Positions 18,839 through 46,713 of a DNA stretch of 64,000 bases are shown here, in pieces. The notes beneath the pieces were generated by a model that searched no databases, had not been told where the DNA came from, and was given only the letters and a program-made list of their open reading frames with translations. Position numbers and translations under genes: made by a program. The stretch's first letter is position 1; every line of letters begins with the position of its first letter. Source of the stretch: Spinacia oleracea (lineage: Eukaryota; Streptophyta; Magnoliopsida; Caryophyllales; Amaranthaceae); assembly GCF_020520425.1 (NCBI RefSeq), contig NC_079491.1, forward strand, positions 9,411,143-9,475,142, written 5' to 3'.

Positions 18839-20212
18839 TGTTAGGTTATGATTCATATGACAGTTCATAAATCATGCGGAAAAACCATAAAGCCAGGAAA
18901 CATATTATTTACACATAATCATTTAGCATAGTTTAGATGCATACTCTTTGTTGCGTGCCTTCCCTAGCTGCGCCCGAACCGAACAAGAACAAGTCTTTAG
19001 GACTCCAAGTGTCGTCCCTCCGTAGATAGTCCACAGCACGTCCGGATCCGCCTTAAGATTGACCAACTAGAATCGCCCTTAAGGTTCTAATATTTTCGGT
19101 TGGGTAGGCAAGAATATTGGCTGATTTTTCTGCTTAAAAATCTTAGTTTTTTTGAATACTTAAAAACTTGTTGTATAAATAATGACCCCTAGGCCTTTAT
19201 TTATAGAGTTATGGAAAAGGAATCGTAATCCTAGTAGGATACGAATTAATTGAAATTAGAATCCTACATGAATTCTATTTAATTAATTTATCCAATTAGG
19301 AATAGAAATTTAATCATACACTGACTCTTGTAGTTTTAGGAATCACGCATGAGCACAAACTCACACACACACGGCAGCCACAAGGGCTGCCCATGCGCGT
19401 GCGAGCAGCAGCCCACGCAGCGCGGCCCACGCATCCGTGGCCTTGGCGCGCGCTGGGCCTGCCTTGCGGTAGGCCTGGGCGCTGCTTTGGCTGCGCGCGT
19501 GCTTGCTGGGCGATGGCCCGGCTTCGTGCTGGGCCTTCGTCCGGCAGGCCTCGTCCGATGCTAATTCGTACGATACGCTTCCGATTAAATTTCCAGTTCC
19601 GGAATTTATTTCCGATACGAACAATATTTAATATTTCCGATTCCGGAATTAATTTCCGTTTCGAACAAATATTTAATATTTCCGTTTCCGGAATTATTTT
19701 CCGATTCCGGTAATATTTCCGATTCTGACAATATTTCCGTTTCCGGCAATATTTCCGATTCTGGTAATATTTCCATTTCCAATAATATTTTCCGATACGT
19801 ACCATGTTTCCGTTTCCGGCAACATCTACGACTTGGATAATATTCATATTTCCGATACGATCCATATTTCCGTTTCCGGCAATATCATCGTTTCCGGAGT
19901 ATTCATTTCTTGCCTGTGACGATCTTAGCTCCCACTGAAACCAAGATCCGTCGGTTCCGAATATTCATAGATGGAGTATTTAATGCCATTAAATACTTGA
20001 TCCGTTTACGTACTATTTGTGTGACCCTACGGGTTCAGTCAAGAGTAAGCTGTGGATTAATATCATTAATTCCACTTGAACTGAAGCGGCCTCTAGCTAG
20101 GCATTCAGCTCACTTGATCTCACTGAATTATTAACTTGTTAATTAATACTGAACCGCATTTATTAGACTTAACATAGAATGCATACTTGGACCAAGGGCA
20201 TTATTTCCTTCA
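18839..20212 (-). repeat. 3' LTR of the copia-type element
   Basis: 1374 bp, essentially identical to 27728-29101. It holds a GC-rich block (about 19370-19560) and an array of short TTCCG-containing units (about 19580-19900). The open frames seen in it are shared exactly with the other LTR and are not genes. Confidence 0.93.
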
Positions 20213-27727: not shown

Positions 27728-29101
27728 TGTTAGGTTATGATTCATATGACAGTTCATAAATCATGCGGAAAAACCATAAAGCCAGGAAACATATTATTTA
27801 CACATAATCATTTAGCATAGTTTAGATGCATACTCTTTGTTGCGTGCCTTCCCTAGCTGCGCCCGAACCGAACAAGAACAAGTCTTTAGGACTCCAAGTG
27901 TCGTCCCTCCGTAGATAGTCCACAACACGTCCGGATCCGCCTTAAGATTGACCAACTAGAATCGCCCTTAAGGTTCTAATATTTTCGGTTGGGTAGGCAA
28001 GAATATTGGCTGATTTTTCTGCTTAAAAATCTTAGTTTTTTTGAATACTTAAAAACTTGTTGTATAAATAATGACCCCTAGGCCTTTATTTATAGAGTTA
28101 TGGAAAAGGAATCGTAATCCTAGTAGGATACGAATTAATTGAAATTAGAATCCTACATGAATTCTATTTAATTAATTTATCCAATTAGGAATAGAAATTT
28201 AATCATACACTGACTCTTGTAGTTTTAGGAATCACGCATGAGCACAAACTCACACACACACGGCAGCCACAAGGGCTGCCCATGCGCGTGCGAGCAGCAG
28301 CCCACGCAGCGCGGCCCACGCATCCGTGGCCTTGGCGCGCGCTGGGCCTGCCTTGCGGTAGGCCTGGGCGCTGCTTTGGCTGCGCGCGTGCTTGCTGGGC
28401 GATGGCCCGGCTTCGTGCTGGGCCTTCGTCCGGCAGGCCTCGTCCGATGCTAATTCGTACGATACGCTTCCGATTAAATTTCCAGTTCCGGAATTTATTT
28501 CCGATACGAACAATATTTAATATTTCCGATTCCGGAATTAATTTCCGTTTCGAACAAATATTTAATATTTCCGTTTCCGGAATTATTTTCCGATTCCGGT
28601 AATATTTCCGATTCTGACAATATTTCCGTTTCCGGCAATATTTCCGATTCTGGTAATATTTCCATTTCCAATAATATTTTCCGATACGTACCATGTTTCC
28701 GTTTCCGGCAACATCTACGACTTGGATAATATTCATATTTCCGATACGATCCATATTTCCGTTTCCGGCAATATCATCGTTTCCGGAGTATTCATTTCTT
28801 GCCTGTGACGATCTTAGCTCCCACTGAAACCAAGATCCGTCGGTTCCGAATATTCATAGATGGAGTATTTAATGCCATTAAATACTTGATCCGTTTACGT
28901 ACTATTTGTGTGACCCTACGGGTTCAGTCAAGAGTAAGCTGTGGATTAATATCATTAATTCCACTTGAACTGAAGCGGCCTCTAGCTAGGCATTCAGCTC
29001 ACTTGATCTCACTGAATTATTAACTTGTTAATTAATACTGAACCGCATTTATTAGACTTAACATAGAATGCATACTTGGACCAAGGGCATTATTTCCTTC
29101 A
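27728..29101 (-). repeat. 5' LTR of the copia-type element
   Basis: 1374 bp, partner of 18839-20212. It carries any promoter of the element and would also be the first element sequence met by transcription coming from unit B exon 1. Confidence 0.93.
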
Positions 29102-40744: not shown

Positions 40745-40807
40745 TGAAGCAAAATTAAAATTATGACGCACGTGCACTTAAAACTAGAATGACGAACGTT
40801 AACGTAC

Positions 40808-41293
40808 CTTCATAAGCCCAACAACAGTCCCACTATAATCAGGGAAATTCTGGATAGACGTAACAACATTCCAAGTATTGAAAAAAGTTTGAGAATGAGC
40901 AGCAAGAAACATGAACACACACATAAGAGGCACAGGTGGACGAGGGATGACTCCAACCACAGCTAACCAAATAAAGAAGTAACCCAAGAACCCCTCCGCC
41001 GCCCCCACCGTGTGAACCACCCAGGGAACACCGCCATTGCGGTTATGCCGCCCCGAGGATACGACGGCGGAATAGAGCAAACCGGAGAGAACTCCGGCAT
41101 TGGACCCAATGTCTTTGAAGACGGAGACGGTGTTGAGGGTGAACTGATCATAGGATTGAGAGGATTTAAGGATAGGTGAGTATAGACTGAAAGTGTACGT
41201 CCCACCTATTATTGCTTGTATCCATATGCTTCCTGCTGTTGCTACCCATCTACTATTACTACTGCTTGTATTGATTAACATTGAGTTTTCCAT
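40808..41293 (-). pseudogene. NFD4-like transporter unit F, orphan first exon
   Basis: A fully open first exon of 162 codons begins at ATG 41293 (MENSMLINTSSSNSRWVATA) and ends with a good donor after …GLMK (AAG|GTACGT). It has the same blocks as unit E (YSPILKSSQSYDQFTLNT, GYFFIWLAVVGVIPRPPVPL, HSQTFFNTWNVVTS). No second exon lies between it and unit E. It is either the remnant of a lost gene or, since the donor phase matches, an upstream first exon that could splice to the second exon of unit E. The open frame and intact donor suggest little decay. I call it a broken gene with that alternative open. Confidence 0.75.
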
Positions 41294-42552
41294 TGCATTT
41301 CTCGTCGTAAAAGGTCTTTTTGTGATCAGAAAGACGAGGAAATACACAAGTTTTAAGTCAAATGGTGATGACACATATTTTCTTGTAGGGTTAATGTCAG
41401 AAAAAATGGAATGGGTTAAATAGATCAGCTTAATTTTGTGATTATTTGTGTATTACGTATAAGTTGTGGTGTGTTTGTTCATAGTACTATGATTTTGATT
41501 TTGATAGGGTGAGTGGAGTATTATATTTGTTGGGTGGAGTAAAAGAATTAATGTCTCTTATGTTTAGTCATTGTCTATCAAGAAGACAAAGGAACCTCAC
41601 GTAATTGACTATATGGTGACTAATTAAGTTTAATATGTTCGTGGACTATTGACAACGGTGTAGAGTGAGCATTGTGCACCAAAGCACACATGTATAACCG
41701 TATAGGTAAATAAAAATGACACTTTGATAAAAGTAATATATAGTCACTAGATTAGTGGTAAAGTCTTGAGGGTTGGTGCCTAAGACCTAAGATCGAATCT
41801 CGTCTATATCATTTTTCGCTTTGCCCTTTGTATACTCTTAATTCCCGTGCTCCAAGCCTCCAACCTCCCGTTGCATAAGTATTGGTGCCAATTATAATTA
41901 TTTTGGGTTTAATATAGAAGATTTCCATCACCGGATCTTTTATGTTAGTCTCCTTACGAACAATTTTAGCCAAGGTTATTCAATGTTTGGTTAAGAATTG
42001 ATTGAATTATTGGTTGAAACTTGCATAGGTATGTTCTATTCGAATAAGTACTAATTAATAAGTTTTAATCTGATCCAATAAATTTATTATCTGAAGTTTA
42101 CTATATTGCAATCAGGTTTAATAAGTGTTAATCAAGTCTAAATCAAATTCAATAAGTTTAGATAAATTTAGAAGCGTTTCAGGTGAAGAGAATGCACTCT
42201 AAATATAAAACACTAAGAAAACGGGTGAAGTATGATGTTAGCAAAGACGAGGATCGATGTAGGTCAATATTAATGTCGGAGACGAGTGAAAAATGGAAAT
42301 ATGACAAAACTCACTAGTCTAAGTAACGTTAATTATGCATTTATGCATATCGAAATGATGGTTTTTCCATAAAATTATGGGACATAATGCATGATTTTGT
42401 GTCACGAAGCAAAGACCTTAGGCTAACGGGTGAAAACAAAACATACTGTTATTGACGCGTACAAGAATTCCCGGGAACACAATTCAACTACGTCAAAGTA
42501 CAAACGTTAATTAATTCAAATTGCTTAGCTTTTAAGTTACAATTAAAATTGA
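41294..42552. other. Spacer upstream of unit F
   Basis: Contains a SINE-like element (41741-41840) and, at about 42080-42180, a dispersed repeat related in inverted orientation to 12050-12200. No exon is seen. Confidence 0.45.
41741..41840 (+). mobile_element. tRNA-derived SINE-like element, second copy
   Basis: Has the order GATTAGTGGTAAAG (A-box-like), then GATCGAATCTCG (B-box-like), then GCCCTTTGTATACTCTT, shared with the insert at 34038-34170 on the other strand. Ends and target duplication are not clear. Confidence 0.55.
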
Positions 42553-42997
42553 CTAGTCTTATATGCACGCGATGCGTGCGGAATTATTAAAAAACTTAAA
42601 ATTGTATTGTTACAACTAATGTATCACAACGAAAAATCAAAATTTCATTACAGATAATAAAGGAGGTGCAGGTGCTAACATAATTCCATAATCCTGTTAT
42701 AGTCTCTACATACTATATCCTGCATGATAGGACGATTATGTCTTATTATAGTCCAAAATCATCCGAGTCTAGAACAGATACAGTAGCCCAGGAAAACTCT
42801 CTCTCCACCCTTGTTATTTAAACTTGTAAAATTGCCATAAGCAGACTTTTGAAGGAAAACAAATCGAAAATTTAGTGCATAAAAGTTTTGCTTCCAGCAC
42901 TACAAACTATGTCTAAACACACACCCACACAGAGGGCATACTTCAACAAAAGGCATCGGCTTAGTTCAAGAGTTTCAAGAAGCTCAGAGCATGTCTC

Positions 42998-44740
42998 TTA
43001 GCCAACTTCATCTCTCTCTGAAGCAGCTACTTCTCCGGGCTTTTCAGCAACCTCCTTTATGCGACGCCACTCTGAAGCAGCTACTTCTCCGGCCTTTCCT
43101 TTATGAATGACTCTTGCCTATAATTAACAGAAACAATTATGAAACAATCTCATACAGCCACCTATAGAGACAAATACTCAAATGTAACAGAAACCAACCT
43201 AAGCTATTCAAACTCCTAGCCACTATGATAATTCATAGCCAAAGCGTTCTGATTGTGTGGCCATTTTATAAGATGAAAACTTGATCACTGCAACACTCTT
43301 TCTCTTAATTTGCAACCATCATTTACAGTTTTGAACAAAGCAAAGAAGACAACTCTACCGGAATTGACAGTCACCTACAATGAAGATGTTGGGAAACAGA
43401 GATTATTTTCAATCCATAAGTCAAATCCACCAACCACTTAGATCTCTTGATAATGTAGATTCTGCAAAAGACTATATCTTAACCATGAGAAGGGATAGAT
43501 TTGCAGCGTCATTCATTCATTTGATAGATTGTACACAGCCATATTATAAATTTGATAGTTTACCCAACAAAAGTAGGGAGACTCGGTCGAAGACAGACAA
43601 ATGAGAAAATTAAAAGTTGCATACAAAGAGCATAATCAGGTTACATAAAATCAGCAAACAACATGACAAAGATTCAATCCCCAATGAATCTCAGCATCCA
43701 AGACTCTAACTCATTCCTAGATGATAACCCCCATAAATGTTCAGCTATTCCCAGAAAAGGCATCTACTTTCTCCAATACCAACTGAAGACACCTCATTTC
43801 ATAGCGGAAAATTTGTCCCATTGCCATCACCCTCATAATTAAGACATACCATAAAGTACTCTAAAACCCACTATAAAAATCATTACATTCCCACACTGGG
43901 CACACTCTCTTAGTTGCTCAATTATCATATTCTCAGAAAAGAGTATTCACTAATTTTCCAGAATGTGAGATAATTGTATGTCTAAAAACATATTCTTTGA
44001 TTTTCCATGCATGTTCCTAAACACAGTAAATAGAATGTATGCCCTAACTCTATACAAAATGAATCTACAACTAATTTACTTCCAAGTTTCCATTTCTATG
44101 TGATGGAATTGACAAAATAAAAGCAGAAAGAGGCACATTAAGGAAAAATTAAGGAAATGATAAGGGGAAAAGGTCTGATAGATTTTAATAGGAAAAATAC
44201 AAAAAATACAGAACAGAACTGGAAGTTGAACACACCTGCTTCTCAATCTCAGCGATCTTCTGTCTCTGTTGAGACGGATGAGTGATCTCTGCACCCATAA
44301 TGATATCACGAATTTCTGACTGGGTTAAAGCCGAGGTGTTCACGTTGTTCTTCTTGGCATAATCAGAAAGTATAAGATCTCTTAAAGCGGCCTCAACCTA
44401 CATAAAAGTGAATTTCGGATTGGTCTTACTTGCATGTTACCTATTGAACAAAAACAAAAGGAATTGCCAGCCCGAGCTATTGTACAGAATCCATTAATAT
44501 TGTGCTTCTATTTGTTCATATAGCAAATTAAGAGAGCTTTTACGCTCTTTCTTTAGTTGATAAAGCAAAAAACACAACACTGACCGACAGACACCAGAGA
44601 GAATAAAAAAGGGAGTAAGGGAAAAAAGACAGTTAACAAAGGGATCATATAGCGAGTACCTTCATGCATTGATCGTCATTTAGGGACGGCCATATATGAT
44701 GTGGTTCAGTTACAACAGTCCTGTCAGGCTTCAGCAACAT
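42998..44740 (-). CDS. Chimeric frame with a captured PRP8 fragment, inside a Helitron
   Basis: Three exons (44660-44740, 44236-44397, 42998-43117) join GT-AG in phase 0 to a 120-residue frame. Exons 1 and 2 match spliceosomal PRP8 between its RNase H-like and Jab1/MPN domains: [20 protein letters not shown], then [20 protein letters not shown] and [14 protein letters not shown]. Upstream of the ATG the PRP8 frame continues (VNN) but has TAG where PRP8 has Glu, so full PRP8 reading is lost and translation would start at Met 44740. Exon 3 is not PRP8 that I recognise: [20 protein letters not shown]… with GEVAASE repeated 19 residues later, then a stop. It lacks all PRP8 catalytic-centre regions. 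It may be an expressed chimera or simply a captured fragment with lucky splice sites. Confidence 0.6.
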
Positions 44741-46282
44741 CTTTGCCTTCTAATTATTGACCTGAAGTGCCCGGAGTATGAGGATTAGCCGAGAAAATGT
44801 TGTACATGAAGAAATACTCTTCAACCAATCATATAAATATTGCAGAAACCCATTTGTGGATAAGAGAAACAAAATCTAGATGACATGAAGTGCCCGGTAA
44901 GTAATCCGGGAATTGCATATTCATCTTAAGTTTTTAGTAAGTGAAGAGCAGTGAGTTTGGGGAGGAGAGAGAAAAGGGTCGTTGGATTATGTTCCAAGTT
45001 TTGGGTTTGAGGGTTTTAACCAGAAAGATTAGCTTGAGATTTAAGGTGATTAATCTTAAATTCCTAATCAGTCAAGGACAACTTTTGAAAGCTGAAACGG
45101 TTGTCGATTTCTTGCGCTTTATGGTCCTCTTAAGGTCCCTCTATATTTGTAGGAATTATTAAAGTGATTAGTGATTATTTAGTCATCATGGATTAAACTA
45201 ACCATCAATGAAATCGATATAGTGTTAAACTTAATTACTCTCTCTGTCCCTCAATGTCATCTCATTATTGACTATCAGCAAACATCCATCAGATGTCAGA
45301 TAAAACTACATTCTCAATAAGTCTCAGTAAATTTTAATGCTTGGCCACAATGCTCTTGTGTTAAACACAAAGAGCCAGTGAATATCATTAAAATAAACCT
45401 AAAATATTGATGACTATTGTACAAAAATCTTACTAAATCAAGAGCTTAGCTTTCTTATTATTAAGAGCTTAGCTTTCTTATTAAAACAGTACCAAGAATG
45501 GCTCTTTGCACCAATCACCGGTTGTTGTATACTCTGCGAACATTTTCCTAAGTCATATAGAGTGGTTGTTTCTGGGTATGGCAACGTGACATTAGGAACA
45601 AAAATTTGAACAGTACCAAAGTACCATTAATGACACGCTAATAATTTAGATCTGTTTGATTAACTTGATCTATGGGCTACAAACGTCACTTGTTTTAAAA
45701 ATATACCCTCAGTTCCTCAATATGCATTTACATGTGATCAGGAATTCACATATTCCTCAATATGCATTCCAAAATCAATATGTACAAACACCAATTAAAA
45801 CCCTAATCGTTCGAAATTCACGTCGTTGAAATAGAATAGTTGGAAATTAGGGTTAAATCAAATCAATAGAATGAAATTCAAAGATTTCTACCAAAATCCA
45901 AACAAACACAGTAAACAGAATCATACTTGAACCCTAAAGACTCGATTATTTACCTATACAAAAATTCAAACATACGCAATAATAAACCCTACATTCCTGG
46001 CAATCTGCCTATACCAAAATCACACTTTATTATTTGCATATTCCTAATCATTTCCCACAAAAAAATATCATTTCCATATCCTACATCCCTAATTATTTCC
46101 CTGTGAAAAAAATATATTAATTACATATTAATTAATTAAATATCTTAAAGTTTCCTTGTAGCAAGAGTGAAAGAGATGATAGGAAGCACCCAAATTTCAA
46201 TCATCAATCAAAGAGAGAAACCCCCAAATCTTACAAATTTGAAATCGAAAATTTAAGAAATGAAAGAAATTGAGTGATTTAC

Positions 46283-46600
46283 CAAAGAGAGTGATTCTGG
46301 AACTCGATTTCTTCCCCAAATCTTAAAAAATTGAAATTGAAAGAACTGAGAGTTCAAAGAACGCCGGCGATGCGCACAATTGCAGACATTCAGTCCTTGT
46401 ATGCGTGCGAGAGTATCAATCCTACCAGCCGAAACTCGAACAAATTAAGAAATGTAAATTAGGGTTTTGAGGAAGGAGAAGAAGCTCAGTGAAAGGAAGA
46501 AGAAAGGTTTGAGAGGAAAGAGGGAGGAGGAAGGAGGAGGAGTACGCGGCTGCCCACTTGCCCAGTTTGGGTGATTGAAATAAACCGAAAAAATGTGAAG
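46283..46600 (-). promoter_or_regulatory. Promoter/5'-UTR-like exon at the head of the Helitron
   Basis: On the minus strand this has the look of a plant leader: long pyrimidine tracts (CTCCTCCTTCCTCCTC), AAACCCTAA, and a strong donor TTTG|GTAAATC at 46283/46282. That donor could splice to the acceptor before 44761, leaving an intron of 1521 bp. A short upstream frame, MSAIVRIAGVL, lies within the leader. Transcription is inferred, not shown. Confidence 0.45.
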
Positions 46601-46713
46601 GGTGTATTAGTCTTTTCAAATGGGGACACGAAAAGTGATATTACAAAAACGCCCTCAGCTGTTCCTTTATATAATAGAGATTCATAGCACACATAATTAT
46701 ATTCTATTCTCTA

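What the first reader, a model, noticed from the sequence alone, without database searches (positions are those of the whole stretch)
42553..46680. Helitron that has captured PRP8 and may express a new chimeric gene
Seen: canonical Helitron ends on the minus strand (A|TC start, hairpin 10 nt before CTAG|T). Inside are two exons that read as PRP8 and a third exon of other origin, all joined in phase 0 by GT-AG sites, with a leader-like exon and strong donor near the element's 5' end. Known: Helitrons capture gene pieces, usually inserted in the element's own direction as here. Inference: the element may drive a 120-residue protein containing a PRP8 linker segment, or produce RNA similar to PRP8 transcripts.
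Basis: partly seen in the sequence, partly recalled or inferred. Interest (0 to 1): 0.78.

Follow-up and report, generated by a model that had tools for sequence, protein, structure and literature searches.

The report
Helitron carrying pieces of several genes
This is a recently active plant jumping element (a Helitron) that has picked up pieces of several unrelated genes, including the splicing-factor gene PRP8; it is real and well preserved, but of a kind already known from maize and other plants, and nothing here shows that its pieces make a working new gene.

Summary
The element at 42553-46680 (minus strand) is a real Helitron. The genome (894 Mb; size fits spinach Monoe-Viroflay) holds three intact copies and a fourth split by a CACTA-like insert, all A|TC...CTAG|T. 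Paralogous empty sites were found for two of the four. All four lie in sense.

The chimeric-gene reading is weaker. The first acceptor (44763-44762) is no PRP8 splice site: it lies inside a PRP8 exon and arose by T-to-G; copy 4, a sister element and both PRP8 genes lack it. The 120-residue frame ends at a TAA absent from copy 4. After capture the PRP8 exons gained 6 replacement/nonsense and 4 silent changes, compatible with no constraint, though counts are small. Chimeric or read-through RNA remains possible and untested; a functional protein is unlikely. Verdict: a well-resolved new member of a known kind.

The parts
42553..46680 (-). Whole Helitron, 4128 bp, non-autonomous
   Evidence: Three full copies with the same ends and a fourth split by an insert; A|TC...CTAG|T; no ORF of 140 aa or more inside
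42565..42579 (-). 3' terminal hairpin GCACGC-ATC-GCGTGC, 8 nt before CTAG
   Evidence: strand folding z -2.4 for the last 60 nt; motif plus CTAGT printed as 570 forward and 570 reverse matches in the genome, control 0
45988..46361 (-). 5' leader/intron stretch like the protein kinase gene at C4:10.31 Mb (SnRK1 by recall), sense
   Evidence: 85.5% over 400 aligned positions to L038 1641-2039, just upstream of kinase ORFs
46281..46283 (-). Leader exon end (46283) and GT donor
   Evidence: GGTAAATC is also present in the kinase gene and in sister element L014; use not tested
44138..44859 (-). Captured PRP8 piece: end of one exon, intron, next exon, start of following intron
   Evidence: 87% to L010 (C4:169253754-169254470), intron included
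44762..44763 (-).
   Evidence: Alignment with two PRP8 genes, sister element L012 and copy 4
44660..44761 (-).
44236..44397 (-).
43970..44140 (-). Stretch like the region after the bZIP ORFs at C4:146.64 Mb (probably 3' UTR), sense
   Evidence: 94% to L027 4887-5061; also in L021 close to a Helitron 3' end
43612..43940 (-). Repetitive stretch; one relative lies near a TOM20 exon in L026, donor uncertain
   Evidence: 85% to L026; 83-85% at three other places
42668..43639 (-).
   Evidence: 84% over 1004 positions plus 44 more at 95% to L011 (C5:15.506 Mb); PF09192 in the next exon of L011
42998..43117 (-).
40799..41374 (-). Neighbouring nodulin-like transporter exon, same direction; its first in-frame ATG lies about 1.26 kb downstream of the element's 3' end
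   Evidence: PF06813 E=2.8e-41

Best explanation
A non-autonomous Helitron, presumably moved in trans by Rep-encoding elements with a similar 3' end (inferred), that carries pieces of probably four host genes picked up as DNA in at least two steps, and that multiplied recently. The PRP8 and PHS1-like pieces are passengers: decaying gene fragments that keep some splice sites and may yield mixed or read-through RNA but most likely no functional protein. Shown: ends, copies, empty sites for two of four copies, likely donors, shared structure with a sister element, lack of a frame and splice set common to all copies. Inferred: mobilisation in trans, peel-and-paste movement, order of capture, any transcription.
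For: Copies with the same ends at four sites whose flanks do not match each other; empty sites for copies 3 and 4 aligned across the junction. 0.19-0.41% difference among copies 1-3 and about 1.5% to copy 4. The PRP8 piece includes an intron and part of the next. Sister element L012 (3541 bp, A|TC...CTAG|T) shares the PRP8 left junction and part of the upstream stretch but shows no match to the PHS1-like piece. L013, L024 and L025 carry PHS1-like sequence and the same 3' end region. 154 PF14214 matches in the genome (150 of 353 candidates scored); L037 has a 975-aa ORF overlapping one of them that ends 2.6 kb before a 3' end matching 26 of 28 terminal bases. Post-capture PRP8-exon changes are 6 replacement/nonsense: 4 silent, against 3:26 on native branches (Fisher p=0.004). 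Variable sites are not rarer in the proposed exons: 10 of 384 against 64 of 3744, p=0.22.
Against: The pairwise replacement/silent ratio of the PRP8 exons against L010 is low (0.029/0.216 per site for copy 1), which could hint at constraint; by branch it sits mostly before the split from L012 (1:6), so donor history can explain it. But 6:4 alone does not differ from neutral (P=0.14), the counts are small, and weak constraint is not excluded. The 120-residue frame is open in copies 1-3. No empty site was found for the window copy and only a partial one for copy 2.
Confidence: 0.87

Rival explanations
1. Expressed chimeric gene: the kinase-type leader splices to the new acceptor at 44763-44762 and the RNA encodes a 120-residue PRP8/PHS1-like protein.
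For: Leader with a GT donor also present in the kinase gene; AG gained in copies 1-3; frame open in those three; inherited donor and acceptor at the other junctions. Maize Helitrons give chimeric, alternatively spliced transcripts (PMC4528327, abstract and passages).
Against: The acceptor is a point mutation inside an exon; W>C, V>A and L>M on the branch to all four copies; acceptor and stop both absent in copy 4; no drop in variability in the exons. No RNA data.
Confidence: 0.06
2. Chimeric or read-through non-coding RNA from the element (compatible with the passenger reading), with possible effects on PRP8 or PHS1-like transcripts through small RNAs, or on the nodulin-like gene downstream.
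For: Sense fragments, leader sequence, about 1.26 kb upstream of a gene in the same direction; read-through transcription reported for maize Helitrons (PMC4528327 abstract).
Against: No expression or small-RNA data here; 13-14% intron and 6-7% exon divergence from L010 would limit silencing in trans.
Confidence: 0.25
3. Segmental duplicate of a PRP8 region rather than a capture.
For: PRP8 intron retained.
Against: Similarity stops inside the element; same ends at four sites; empty sites for two; pieces of unrelated genes on either side.
Confidence: 0.01

Closest known systems
Gene-capturing Helitrons of maize (Hel1-331, -332, -333 and others; PMC4528327, abstract, introduction and passages seen)
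   Same: Insertion between A and T, TC and CTRR ends, captured gene pieces, near-identical long copies at different places, exons of unrelated genes side by side
   Different: Other host and other captured genes; transcripts shown in maize, not tested here
Helitrons annotated in spinach with HelitronScanner (1297 elements in another assembly; PMC6337768, passages seen)
   Same: Same host if this genome is spinach; this element may be of that set (not checked)
   Different: The passages seen describe no captured genes
Pack-MULEs (PMC13317346, passages seen)
   Same: Carry host gene fragments, some expressed as chimeric transcripts
   Different: Terminal inverted repeats and target duplications define them (recalled). 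No target duplication at the two empty sites; inverted repeats were not searched for, none is evident in the end sequences

Membership tests
Helitron | Starts with TC and ends with CTRR | tested here: met
   TCTCTATTAT... and CTAG in 4 of 4 copies
Helitron | Insertion between host A and T without target duplication | tested here: met
   A|T at 4 of 4 sites; empty sites aligned for 2 of 4
[quoted passage not shown]
   6-bp stem, 8 nt before CTAG
Helitron | Repeated elsewhere with the same ends | tested here: met
Autonomous Helitron | Encodes Rep and helicase | tested here: not met
   No ORF of 140 aa or more inside the element; no listed PF14214 place overlaps it (list cut). So non-autonomous; a possible partner is L037
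Helitron | Rolling-circle / peel-and-paste transposition | not testable with these tools
   Inferred from ends and empty sites
Gene-capturing Helitron expressing a chimeric gene | Transcript joining exons of different captured genes | not testable with these tools
   No RNA data available
Gene-capturing Helitron expressing a chimeric gene | Open frame kept under constraint after capture | tested here: inconclusive
   6 replacement/nonsense: 4 silent; P=0.14 against neutral, p=0.004 against native PRP8 branches

The most novel reading that the evidence does not exclude
A single T-to-G change after capture created a splice acceptor in one lineage of this Helitron (copies 1-3), linking a kinase-type leader to PRP8 and PHS1-like exons; that lineage has since made three near-identical copies while only one full copy without it was found, so the element may be a snapshot of a new chimeric gene being born and multiplied.
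Probability: 0.05. Interest if true: 0.6.

Novelty: new member of a known kind. Interest (0 to 1): 0.28.

Why it matters
It is a clear case of stepwise exon shuffling by a Helitron outside the grasses: likely donors, capture order and recent copies can be read in one genome. If RNA were found, the three copies with the new acceptor and the one without it would be a natural test of how a chance mutation turns captured pieces into a spliced transcript.

Tried and rejected
The low pairwise replacement/silent ratio first looked like constraint; branch counts place most of it before the split from L012. Segmental duplication was rejected. A TOM20 origin for 43612-43940 was not accepted because similar stretches lie at three other places. 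The stretch 44942-45220 matches L028 at 82%; its ORFs were only looked at by eye and named nothing. A search with 44851-45988 gave, beyond the four copies, only short matches of 76-93% that were not followed up except where they lie in loci already held. The source of about 46362-46599 was not found: one search lists relatives of the 5' part at other places whose nature I did not examine. The first of the two kinase ORFs of L038 is below the Pfam cut-off (28.8 against 31.7), the second above (61.6). The empty-site search for the window copy gave only one-sided matches (40 scored of 866 candidates). Literature: no paper on this element was found with Helitron + spinach + gene capture (0 papers), Helitron + PRP8 (3 papers, listing only), spinach genome + Helitron (4), Helitron + spinach + captured (7); of the last two lists only PMC6337768 was opened (passages). 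Subscription journals are mostly not held.

Full report
Setting. The window is G000:C5:9411143-9475142 of an 894,210,420-bp assembly in 242 contigs. Its size, and matches on six large contigs C1-C6, fit the spinach line Monoe-Viroflay (about 894.3 Mb, six pseudomolecules, 307 contigs; PMC8668906, passages seen). The species is an inference. Element coordinates below (q) run 5' to 3' on the minus strand; window position = 46681 - q.

Ends and copies. The genome search (40 of 1583 candidates scored) finds full copies on C6 and C1 and a fourth on C4 (q1-3841 and q3839-4128, with an insert between). Alignment shows the same ends in all four, A|TCTCTATTATATAAAGG...GCACGCATCGCGTGCATATAAGACTAG|T, except one changed hairpin base in the C4 copy. 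The flanks of the four show no similarity to each other. Copies 1-3 differ by 0.19, 0.36 and 0.41%, and from copy 4 by 1.48-1.53%. With plant mutation rates of about 0.7-1.3e-8 per year (recalled), that is roughly 0.1 million years for the closest pair and up to about 1 million for copy 4. Copy 4 carries an insert of about 8.2 kb with CACTAGTAGAAAAA/TTTTTCTACTAGTG ends.

Empty sites. Joined flanks were searched in the genome. For copies 3 and 4 there are paralogous repeats that run through the junction with nothing inserted (C2:112565131, 97%; C1:92394701, 93%; C3:142810060, 89%). For copy 2 most matches start 5-9 bases before the junction and cover one flank, so the test is partial. For the window copy only one-sided matches were found. 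So 2 of 4 sites are confirmed.

Family. The exact hairpin-to-CTAGT motif is printed as 570 forward and 570 reverse matches, control 0 and 0. The genome has 154 matches to the Helitron Rep-type domain PF14214 (150 of 353 candidates scored; list cut). L037 has a 975-aa ORF overlapping one of them that ends 2.6 kb before a 3' end identical at 26 of 28 terminal bases; that the ORF also holds a helicase is recall, not a search. The window element has no ORF of 140 aa or more and is non-autonomous; that such an element moves it is an inference.

Mosaic. (a) q320-693 is 85.5% identical to the stretch just upstream of the ATG of a protein kinase gene at C4:10.31 Mb. Its ORFs match Pkinase; the name SnRK1 is recalled from the sequence. 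The leader donor GGTAAATC is present there too. (b) q1822-2543 is 87% identical to PRP8 at C4:169.254 Mb, introns included; a second PRP8 gene about 32 kb away matches only in exons. (c) q2541-2711 is 94% identical to a stretch after the bZIP ORFs of L027. (d) q2741-3069 is a repeat of unclear source. (e) q3042-4013 matches L011, whose next exon has the actin-fragmin kinase domain (PF09192, E=6e-12). The name PHS1 and its phosphatase part are recalled; the ORF taken for that part matched no Pfam family. The four pieces a, b, c and e all lie in sense.

Order of capture. Sister element L012 (3541 bp, own A|TC and CTAG|T ends) has the same PRP8 left junction and, at 78%, part of the upstream stretch (q585-820), but no match in the PHS1-like piece; its only 3' match is the last 48 bases. 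L013, L024 and L025 carry PHS1-like sequence. The simplest reading is that the kinase-leader and PRP8 pieces were joined first and the 3' half was added later, perhaps from another Helitron. This is an inference.

The proposed chimeric gene. The frame from 44740 reads 120 residues in copies 1-3. But the first acceptor lies inside a PRP8 exon: both PRP8 genes, L012 and copy 4 read CATGTC where copies 1-3 read CAGGTC. A one-base deletion further up (shared with L012) shifts the PRP8 frame. The stop at 43000-42998 is GAA in copy 4. The third junction joins a PRP8 donor to an acceptor also present in L011, both in phase 0.

Constraint. Pairwise against L010 the PRP8 exons show 6 replacement and 12 silent changes in copy 1 (0.029 and 0.216 per site). 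By branch (Fitch, 264 bp, the 5-bp insertion of L012 left out), 1 replacement and 6 silent changes precede the split from L012. Afterwards, in the lineage of the four copies, there are 6 replacement or nonsense changes (W>C, V>A, L>M, E>stop, Q>K, R>M) and 4 silent ones; Q>K recurs in L012. That does not differ from neutral (P=0.14) and differs from the native branches (3:26, p=0.004). Variable sites among the copies are not rarer in the three exons (10 of 384) than elsewhere (64 of 3744; p=0.22). Counts are small, so weak constraint cannot be excluded.

Place in the window. The element lies in the same direction as, and about 1.26 kb upstream of the first in-frame ATG of, a nodulin-like transporter exon at 40799-41374. 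Read-through into flanking exons is reported for maize Helitrons (PMC4528327 abstract); here it is untested.

Conclusion. The chimeric-gene inference rests on an acceptor that arose by mutation and is not shared by all copies. Captured pieces and chimeric transcripts are well known for plant Helitrons (PMC4528327, abstract and passages; PMC13317346, passages), so this is a new member of a known kind.

Noticed in passing
L031 1399-2349 (-), C1:126624537-126625229: Open single-exon 316-aa ORF made mostly of a diverged PRP8 domain IV (209.5 bits) standing alone; possibly a separate diverged PRP8-domain gene.
   Followed up: partly
C4:169.253 and C4:169.285 Mb (L010, L009): Two PRP8 genes about 32 kb apart with 27 silent and 2 replacement differences in the 264 bp compared, so both look or looked constrained.
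   Followed up: partly
L004 5339 onward to L017 8745: CACTA-like element of about 8.2 kb inside copy 4, with matching CACTAGTAGAAAAA ends; GCT on both sides but two extra bases (AA) on the left.
   Followed up: partly
window 8069-41374 (-): Several ORFs in one direction that look like nodulin-like transporters; the three of them scanned match PF06813, two also NFD4_C.
   Followed up: partly
window 19314-19865 and 28203-28754 (-): The same 183-aa ORF translation appears twice (by eye), suggesting a recent repeat.
   Followed up: no
L016 4640-5100 and 4521-4554: A 461-bp 3' piece 99% identical to this element on C6:17.949 Mb, with a second 3' end close behind it and GCC, not T, after CTAG at both: possibly tandem or truncated Helitron ends.
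   Followed up: no
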